Below the pieces are notes generated by a model. It did no database searches. It worked only from the letters and a program-made list of their open reading frames with translations, and was not told the origin of the DNA. This document shows positions 75 through 35,328 of a stretch of DNA of 35,448 bases, piece by piece. Position 1 is the stretch's first letter; every line of letters begins with the position of its first letter. The stretch comes from Chthoniobacterales bacterium (lineage in GTDB: Bacteria > Verrucomicrobiota > Verrucomicrobiia > Chthoniobacterales > JACTMZ01), in contig JAJTYZ010000032.1 in NCBI GenBank assembly GCA_021463515.1, positions 1 to 35,448 of the forward strand. Reading direction: 5' to 3'. Both the position numbers and the translations under genes were made by a program.

Positions 75-488
75 TTAGTGGGTTGCTTCTTGTCGAAGAC
101 TGATGAGTTCCAGCACTTGGGTTTCTTTCAGGTTAAAGAGCCCAAGTCCGGTAAAGTAGCGGTTCGGCCAGCGTTGATGGTTAGCCCCTCGTCCACGCCC
201 TCGGCCTTTCCTGCGTTTTCGCAATATGGATCGTAGCCTCATTCGTAGCCATTGGTCTATTCCTGCTAGCTCGCTGGGATGCGCGTGTTTAAAATATCCA
301 TACCACCCTTTGAGCGTTCGGTTCACGTTGCTCACGATGACTTCTATGCTCTTGCCATTGGTTCGCCGTGCTTGAGGTTTGATGGCCTCTCGCAACTTGC
401 GCTGACTTTTAGGTCGCACGAGTCGCAAGATTTCTCCCCGTTGGATTCGTTTAAACCGATAACCCAAAAAGTCAAAATGACTCTTAAG
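75..488 (-). pseudogene. ltrA-like: Group II intron reverse transcriptase/maturase, C-terminal remnant
   Basis: The open frame begins right after an in-frame TGA (489-491) and reads HFDFLGYRFKR, then a maturase-type block with RTNGKSIEVIV, LKGWYGYFK and RWPNRYF, ending in a basic tail. FDFLGYRF at the end of the RT part and the GWYxYFK / RWPNxYF block are hallmarks of the group II intron maturase-specific (GIIM) domain. Only about 137 codons remain. The whole RT palm with its YADD motif is missing, and no ATG opens the frame. I see no domain V-like hairpin in the 74 bases downstream, although the window ends there. Best read as a 5'-truncated, non-functional intron-encoded protein. The flanking bases 1-74 are AT-rich and hold nothing else I recognise, and 492-597 shows no coherent gene. 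Confidence 0.85.
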
Positions 489-34703: not shown

Positions 34704-34756
34704 CAGGGGCGTCTCGCCCGTGATCTAAAACCCAACCATGGGCGGTCTCGCCCGTG
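34704..34756. repeat. Two copies of the dispersed palindromic repeat
   Basis: CAGGGGCGTCTCGCCCGTGAT (34704-34724, split as C-AGGGGCG-TCT-CGCCCGTG-AT) and CATGGGCGGTCTCGCCCGTG (34737-34756) are variants of the arm at 10949-10973. Both keep the GGCG-TCT-CGCC type centre and occur here as direct, not inverted, repeats. Against the copy at 10949, an A-T stem pair is replaced by G-C, a compensating change that keeps the hairpin. Confidence 0.8.
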
Positions 34757-34850
34757 TCACCTCAACTTTCCATACACTCCACATTATGTGGGTTTATGAC
34801 TTAAAAGAAAGCGGGTTAGCCTTGTATCTTCCTCCTCTCATCAAGGGGGC

Positions 34851-34908
34851 GCCGAGGGGAGTCTCCGAGAATGGGCCACAAAGCTCGTCGGAGGAGACTT
34901 CCCTCGGC
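34851..34908. repeat. Long inverted repeat, 16-bp arms
   Basis: GCCGAGGGGAGTCTCC (34851-34866) pairs with GGAGACTTCCCTCGGC (34893-34908) with a single G-T pair, around a 26-base spacer. It is unrelated in sequence to the other palindrome and lies in the gene-free stretch 34623-34975, which otherwise holds only the dispersed repeat copies. It could be another mobile palindrome or a structured RNA hairpin. Confidence 0.75.
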
Positions 34909-34975
34909 GGTGGTGGGTCAGGATTTGCCTGCGTTGGAAGTCTCGATAACGAGCCTTTAGAATGTAGGCACTCTG

Positions 34976-35156
34976 GCAGCGGAGGGAACCGACTGGTGTC
35001 TTCCGCAGCAATTAGGACAGTCCGAATTCAAACCTCGGTGGTTATACACCGTAAGTCAGCAAGGTCGCCTGATTGCGCCAGAGATAAACTCGAACTGTTG
35101 ATTGGGCCACGAGGTTGCTCACGAGCCCGCATTTGCAAGAAGGAGAATACCCACTG
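34976..35156 (+). other. IS110-family left end, candidate bridge-RNA region
   Basis: The 181 bases directly before the IS110 transposase start fold into small stems: GCAGCGGA with TCCGCAGC (34976-34983 / 35002-35009, one mismatch) and CGGTG-GTTATA-CACCG (35036-35051). A good Shine-Dalgarno AAGGAG (35140-35145) precedes the ATG at 35157. IS110 elements express a bridge RNA from the non-coding left end next to the transposase gene. Position, length and hairpins fit, but I cannot assign target and donor loops, and the element is decayed. Confidence 0.5.
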
Positions 35157-35328
35157 ATGAAAACGCAACCGAACAAAGAAACCATCTACATCGGACTCGA
35201 CGTAGCCAAGGCCCATCTGGACTTGGCCGGGGCCCGGAATTAAAGAGCAACGCTTTAGCAACAACGCGGAGGGCTTTGCGGCCCTGATTGCGATGTTGGC
35301 GGCCCTTAAACGCACTTTCTTTTCCTAA
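35157..35328 (+). pseudogene. IS110-family (DEDD) transposase, frameshifted N-terminal fragment
   Basis: The ATG frame reads IYIGLDVAKAHLDLAGAR and stops at TAA 35241. The text then continues in the +1 frame as GIKEQRFSNNAEGFAALIAM up to a stop at 35326. GLDVAKxxLDxA carries the first catalytic Asp of the DEDD RuvC-like domain, and RFSNNAEGFAALI is its next conserved block. A one-base gain or two-base loss near 35236-35244 breaks the gene. The remaining 300 or so residues, with the Tnp_IS116/110 C-terminal Ser domain, are missing, because the similarity ends near AALK. Non-functional remnant. Confidence 0.85.

What the first reader, a model, noticed from the sequence alone, without database searches (positions are those of the whole stretch)
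34976..35328. Decayed IS110 element with a candidate bridge-RNA left end
IS110 transposases use a bridge RNA made from the non-coding end to choose target and donor. The 181 bases before a clear IS110 start contain two hairpins and a Shine-Dalgarno, while the transposase is frameshifted and cut after about 55 codons. The RNA part may have survived its enzyme, which could be supplied in trans by a full copy.
Basis: partly seen in the sequence, partly recalled or inferred. Interest (0 to 1): 0.6.

Follow-up and report, generated by a model that had tools for sequence, protein, structure and literature searches.

The report
IS110 remnant with shared mobile-element hairpin
This is the dead front half of a known kind of RNA-guided jumping gene; it is ordinary in itself, but it carries a hairpin with an unchanging 20-base core that also sits inside many unrelated jumping genes and small viruses, has no match in the RNA-family library and has no known job.

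Summary
Positions 34821-35319 are the 5' part of an IS110-group insertion sequence. Its left terminus is CTTGTAT and its non-coding left end is about 336 nt, not 181. The transposase is frameshifted and truncated.

A donor-binding-loop model built only from relatives hits 35083-35142 (44.7 bits, E 2e-9). The fold shows stem-loops plus a target-binding-loop arm. Intact relatives (six and two near-identical copies) show guides matching their own target and donor ends, so this is a bridge-RNA left end of the IS110 group, not IS1111.

'RNA outlives enzyme, works in trans' is not supported. No full copy is in the 66%-complete genome, the right end is gone, and the predicted target guide does not match the left flank.

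The unexpected part is a hairpin at 34847-34912: a compensatory-changing stem around an invariant core, GAGAATGGG...CTCGTCGGAG. It is absent from Rfam. The core occurs in 70 of 388 sampled genomes of the phylum (reversed pattern: 0), inside or beside IS110, IS256, IS3, ISL3, IS481-like and IS21 transposase genes and upstream of microvirus Rep, nearly always reading inward. Its function is unknown; I favour an RNA element acting on transcripts entering the mobile element.

The parts
34821..34829 (+). left terminus of the element (CT core + TGTATCT); flank before it is AGCGGGTTAGC
   Evidence: same CTTGTATG terminus where six copies (G331) and two copies (G578) of relatives diverge from their flanks; also L077, L118, L078, L034 (sequence)
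34847..34912 (+). hairpin A: variable 17-bp stem around invariant core CGAGAATGGG-CCACAAAG-CTCGTCGGAG
   Evidence: covariance model R1 71.9 bits, E 2e-15 (the window is one of the 31 model sequences); pattern also in 70/388 phylum genomes, 0 control; inside the element boundaries in relatives
34926..34969 (+). stem-loop B (GCCTGCGTTGGAAGTCTCGATAACGAGCCTTTAGAATGTAGGC)
   Evidence: MFE fold of the left end; a stem-loop also folds at the corresponding place in L008 and L070
34971..35083 (+). forked structure closed by CTCTGGC/GCCAGAG, with arm 1 (34979-35006) and the target-binding-loop arm (35007-35077)
   Evidence: folds of window and L008 agree; same layout in L067, L069, L070
35027..35035 (+). 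predicted left target guide TTCAAACCT
   Evidence: position homologous to CTGGATCCTT in G331, which matches its own target; inference for the window
35055..35064 (+). predicted right target guide GTCAGCAAGG (reverse complement CCTTGCTGAC)
   Evidence: position homologous to AGTGAAG in G331, which matches its right flank CTTCACT; inference for the window
35083..35142 (+). donor-binding-loop region (AACTCGAACTGTTG ... GGGC/GCCC stem ... GCATTTGCAAG)
   Evidence: model R2 built from 17 relatives without the window: 44.7 bits, E 2.1e-9; next window hit 6.5 bits
35140..35145 (+). Shine-Dalgarno AAGGAG
   Evidence: sequence
35157..35319 (+). IS110 transposase remnant: 28 codons in frame, then a frameshift and about 25 more codons; RuvC-like domain cut short, serine Tnp domain absent
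   Evidence: translation, tblastn to L008/L034

Best explanation
Window 34821-35319 is the 5' remnant of an IS110-group insertion sequence. Shown: left terminus, hairpin A, bridge-RNA donor loop, and a broken transposase start. Shown in intact relatives: the left-end RNA carries target guides and donor guides that match the element's own junctions around a CT core. Inferred for the window: when the element was whole, excision joined right and left ends, a promoter formed across the junction, and a bridge RNA of about 300 nt guided the recombinase. The remnant is now inactive, with no enzyme and no right end. Hairpin A is not specific to IS110. It is a module of about 66 nt present in several unrelated IS families and in microviruses. 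My best reading of its role (about 40%, inferred) is an RNA element that acts on transcripts running into the mobile element from outside, by stopping, processing or protein-binding them, because its forward strand almost always reads inward from the nearer end of the element. When the element is an IS110, it would also form the 5' part of the bridge RNA.
For: Identity. Donor-loop model from relatives without the window: E 2e-9, next hit 6.5 bits. The model also hits IS110 elements of Gammaproteobacteria, including one annotated ISEc32, just upstream of their start codons. Boundaries and guides of intact copies. G331 has target CTGGATC|CT|TCACT, guide CTGGATCCTT, guide AGTGAAG (reverse complement CTTCACT), and donor ACCGCTG equal to its guide ACCGCTG. 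Hairpin A: one copy in the own genome, so not a local dispersed repeat. It lies 237-331 nt upstream of, and in the same sense as, 11 of 12 distinct IS110 loci (411 nt in the twelfth). Stem covariation: 12/12 stem pairs with both-sided changes, 201 double-changed cells against 74 in shuffles, score 0.98 against 0.23, and it collapses on sliding by one column. Pfam identities of neighbours. Element ends. Orientation: 25 of 27 contig-start hits; about 15 of 16 classified element types.
Against: The window's predicted left target guide (TTCAAAC) matches the actual left flank (GGTTAGC) at only 2 of 7 positions. No expression data exist. The sequences used for the hairpin model were required to pair in at least 6 of 8 stem positions; without that requirement 42 of 53 strict-core instances still do. 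Some hairpins (for example three in G024) have no recognised transposase beside them. One IS3-type case (L143) carries the hairpin at the 3' end in the same sense, against the inward rule.
Confidence: 0.82

Rival explanations
1. The remnant still works: its bridge RNA is made and is used in trans by a full-length IS110 elsewhere in the genome.
For: Donor-loop sequence and the forked fold are intact. The conserved GAGC/GCTC stem is GGGC/GCCC in the window, a two-sided change that keeps pairing. The genome is only 66% complete.
Against: No full copy found. The right end, and with it half of the junction promoter known from IS621 (PMC11208160), is missing. No convincing promoter inside (one weak match at 34934-34963, about chance). 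The target guide does not fit the flank.
Confidence: 0.07
2. Hairpin A acts as DNA, not RNA: extruded on single strands it is a host-factor site (for example primosome or DnaA loading), useful to replicating elements and ssDNA phages.
For: Present upstream of the rolling-circle Rep gene in microviruses. A subset of stems carry DnaA-box-like feet (TTATCCACA/TTATCCATA).
Against: The DnaA-like foot is missing in most stems, including the window. IS256, IS3 and ISL3 elements have no known need for such a site. The apical core is asymmetric and strand-specific.
Confidence: 0.15
3. Hairpin A is an ordinary, bidirectional terminator-like hairpin that elements acquire to shield themselves; the core is conserved only by descent.
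For: Strong stems at element ends; plausible role in blocking read-through.
Against: No T-run follows it in the copies inspected. The 20-nt core is invariant while every stem pair has been replaced by different pairs, which descent alone does not give.
Confidence: 0.15
4. Hairpin A is a component of the IS110 recombinase RNP (an enlarged 5' stem-loop of the bridge RNA).
For: Sits at the 5' side of the bridge RNA in IS110. In L077 it occupies the place of the usual 5' stem-loop.
Against: Same hairpin occurs in DDE transposons and microviruses, which have no bridge RNA. Many IS110 left ends lack it (terminus -139 to -186 from the donor motif instead of -224 to -266).
Confidence: 0.08

Closest known systems
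IS110 group (IS621, ISEc32) with left-end bridge RNA (PMC11208160)
   Same: IS110 transposase N-terminus, long left end, very short right end in relatives, CT core, target loop 5' of donor loop, donor loop adjacent to the start codon; intact relatives have matching guides
   Different: The window copy is truncated. It and some relatives carry an extra 66-nt hairpin between terminus and bridge RNA. The donor-loop model does not hit IS621 itself, so it is a different subfamily.
IS1111 group
   Same: Same recombinase family
   Different: Guide RNA in the right end in IS1111; here in the left end.
Acido-Lenti-1 RNA (RF01687)
   Same: An Rfam RNA that scored near its threshold in one locus of this phylum (L134)
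   Different: That match lies about 1.5 kb from hairpin A; hairpin A matches no Rfam model.
REP / CGTC-tagged palindromes (PMC3733652)
   Same: Palindromic, intergenic, some linked to mobile elements
   Different: REP loops are mostly short and the tag is at the foot of the stem. Hairpin A has the invariant part at the apex, unrelated stems, lies inside element boundaries, and has a single copy in the window's genome.
IS10/IS50-type protection from read-through transcription (own knowledge)
   Same: Hairpin near an element end that would be present only in transcripts from outside
   Different: There the hairpin sequesters the start region by base-pairing and has no conserved core shared across families.

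Membership tests
IS110 family | RuvC-like DEDD recombinase N-terminus (PF01548) | tested here: met
   48% identity over 42 residues to an IS110 transposase; too short for Pfam alone
IS110 family | C-terminal Tnp domain with catalytic serine (PF02371) | tested here: not met
   ORF ends after about 54 codons; nothing IS110-like to the contig end. It is a remnant, not a working member.
IS110 group versus IS1111 | guide RNA in the left end, left end much longer than right end | tested here: met
   left end about 336 nt in the window; relatives G331/G578 have about 310-330 nt left and about 10 nt right ends
Bridge RNA | structured RNA region conserved with other IS110 left ends | tested here: met
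   model R2 without the window: E 2.1e-9
Bridge RNA | target guides complementary to the target site | tested here: not met
   met in G331 and mostly in G578; in the window the left guide matches the flank at 2/7 positions; right flank lost, so the right guide cannot be tested
Bridge RNA | donor guides complementary to the element's own ends | tested here: inconclusive
   right donor guide GCAAG can pair with CTTGT at the left terminus (one G-T); left donor cannot be tested because the right end is gone
Bridge RNA | RNA expressed and bound by the recombinase | not testable with these tools
   needs small-RNA sequencing and binding assays
Rfam families (hairpin A) | match to any of 4227 models | tested here: not met
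   no match in the window even at E 1; none over hairpin A in 20 related loci
REP / CGTC palindromes | short stem-loop with GTAG or CGTC at the foot, many near-identical copies per genome | tested here: not met
   one copy in the own genome; invariant part at the apex, stems unrelated

The most novel reading that the evidence does not exclude
Hairpin A is an undescribed class of regulatory RNA (or folded DNA) carried by otherwise unrelated mobile elements (at least five or six IS families in one bacterial phylum, and ssDNA microviruses). All would use one conserved apical motif that a shared host factor or the RNA itself recognises, placed to act on transcripts entering the element.
Probability: 0.5. 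Interest if true: 0.8.

Novelty: new variant of a known kind. Interest (0 to 1): 0.52.

Why it matters
The IS110 remnant itself is routine. The hairpin is not. Unrelated transposons and a phage lineage sharing one covarying RNA-like motif with an invariant core implies a common host interaction that mobile elements of this phylum converge on or exchange. If it acts on incoming transcripts, it would be a general insulation device for mobile elements and a candidate part for bounding expression. If it is part of IS110 bridge RNAs, it shows that these RNAs can carry extra modules.

Tried and rejected
(1) Rfam on the window and on 20 related loci: nothing over the feature. (2) Hairpin A as a dispersed target repeat (REP) into which the IS jumped: rejected, single copy in the genome and inside the element ends of multi-copy relatives. 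(3) Hairpin A as a recently copied mini-element: rejected, stems are unrelated and only the core is shared. (4) Conserved leader peptide (the core contains ATG): rejected, the apical spacer varies between 6 and 11 nt and frames differ. (5) Resemblance of AGAA/GUC in the core to hairpin-ribozyme loop A: flanking pairs do not fit; dropped. (6) A donor guide in the 5' arm: dropped after relatives placed the donor loop next to the start codon. (7) RNAalifold on the MAFFT alignment of target plus donor region found only the 4-bp donor stem; variable guides prevent a full consensus fold. (8) Plasmid collection search for the core: none; phages: only chance-level hits. (9) Literature: nothing on this motif; REP paper read and excluded.

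Full report
WHAT IS THERE. The window is a complete contig (G000:C67, 35448 nt) of a 66%-complete genome. An IS110 N-terminus begins at 35157, shifts frame near 35240 and stops being recognisable near 35319. The nearest relative found, L008 (same order), aligns at 48% over 42 residues. The second transposase domain and the right end are absent. After 129 nt of other sequence the contig ends.

WHERE THE ELEMENT STARTS. In six copies of a relative in G331 and two in G578 the flanks diverge just before CTTGTATG. The same terminus occurs in L034, L077, L078 and L118, and in the window as CCTTGTATCTT at 34820-34830. The left end is therefore about 336 nt, not 181.

BRIDGE RNA. Most IS110 relatives examined carry AACTCGAACnGTTG...GAGC...GCTCGCATnACAAG shortly before the start codon. 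A covariance model from 17 of them, without the window, hits window 35083-35142 at E 2e-9. It also hits IS110 elements of Xenorhabdus, Klebsiella and E. coli (one annotated ISEc32) at the same place, but not IS621. In intact relatives the parts behave as guides. For G331 the target is CTGGATC|CT|TCACT; the RNA has CTGGATCCTT and AGTGAAG, the reverse complement of CTTCACT. Its right end ACCGCTG equals the donor guide ACCGCTG, and ACAAG is complementary to the terminus CTTGT. For G578 the right guide and donor guide match and the left guide matches partly. The order (5' stem-loop, target loop, donor loop) is that of IS621 (PMC11208160). In the window the homologous positions read TTCAAACCT and GTCAGCAAGG. 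Both contain the CT core in register and predict a target TTCAAAC-CT-TGCTGAC, but the actual left flank is GGTTAGC-CT, a poor match.

SURVIVAL OF THE RNA. The assembly contains only two other IS110 scraps, on C64 and C104. In IS621 the bridge-RNA promoter forms across the joined ends (PMC11208160). Here one end is gone and only one weak promoter-like match is present. Function in trans is therefore unsupported, though not excluded because the genome is incomplete.

HAIRPIN A. At 34847-34912 lies a 17-bp stem around CGAGAATGGG-CCACAAAG-CTCGTCGGAG. A strict pattern is unique in the own genome and rare in the order (model search of 210 order genomes: 9 positive). In the phylum it occurs in 70 of 388 genomes, often in many copies, with zero matches for the reversed pattern. 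In viral contigs a stricter pattern gives 7 matches against 0 for the control. Thirty-four distinct stems show an invariant core and 76-100% pairing at each of 12 stem positions, with four to six pair types at each. On 31 of them all 12 stem pairs have two-sided changes, the covariation score is 0.98 against 0.23 shuffled, and it falls to 0.34 or less when slid by one column or more. The base after GGG and the base before CTCG also covary (C-G, T-A, A-T). Selection for pairing is not the cause: of 53 strict-core instances 42 pair in at least 6 of 8 positions, while 22 relaxed-core matches pair in 0-4.

WHERE HAIRPIN A OCCURS. It is in 12 distinct IS110 loci, upstream and in the same sense. It is also inside or beside IS256-type (L172, L177, L190, L121), IS3-type (L107, L109, L114, L116, L143), ISL3 (L111), IS481-like (L120), IS21 IstB (L136) and other integrase-core elements, and upstream of the Rep gene of microviruses (L140, L155, L163). 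In bounded multi-copy elements it lies 47 to 156 nt from one end. It reads inward: in the same sense when 5' of the transposase, antisense when 3' of it, with one exception (L143). Of 27 listed hits within about 100 nt of a contig start, 25 have their 3' side facing the contig break, as expected if the repeat continues inward. Some copies have no recognised transposase nearby. The motif is absent from Rfam 15, and I found no paper describing it.

READING. IS110 left ends without hairpin A are 139-186 nt from terminus to donor motif; most with it are 224-266. So it is an added module, and in L077 it replaces the usual 5' stem-loop. Because DDE transposons and microviruses share it, its job cannot be bridge-RNA function as such. 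The inward orientation makes an RNA acting on incoming transcripts the simplest common role, at about 40%. A folded-DNA host-factor site and a plain terminator are the main rivals. None of these steps is shown experimentally.

LIMITS. Range outside this phylum was not testable except in viral contigs, plasmids and phages.

Noticed in passing
window 75-467 (-): The contig begins inside what looks like the C-terminal part of a group II intron maturase / reverse transcriptase, so both contig ends break at mobile-element remnants.
   Followed up: no
window 34706-34722 and 34740-34756: A 17-nt GC-rich imperfect direct repeat (GGGGCGTCTCGCCCGTG) 34 nt apart, just upstream of the IS110 left end.
   Followed up: no
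L119, L120, L122, L127, L128, L131 (next to the hairpin motif): A subset of hairpin-A stems have feet resembling DnaA boxes (GAGTTATCCACAG ... CTGTGGGTAACTC).
   Followed up: partly
L099-L104 (G331): Six near-identical IS110 copies inserted in a REP-like palindrome (GAATCCA...TGGATYCTTC), with guides that match it: a clean natural example of bridge-RNA targeting outside Proteobacteria.
   Followed up: yes
L134:2921-2985 (-): Acido-Lenti-1 RNA match just under its gathering score (35.4 against 37 bits), 1.5 kb from an IS256 element with hairpin A.
   Followed up: no
L198, L206, L208 (G024): Three solitary hairpin-A copies sharing a downstream TCAATA-CCCCC-type tail, without a recognised transposase.
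   Followed up: partly
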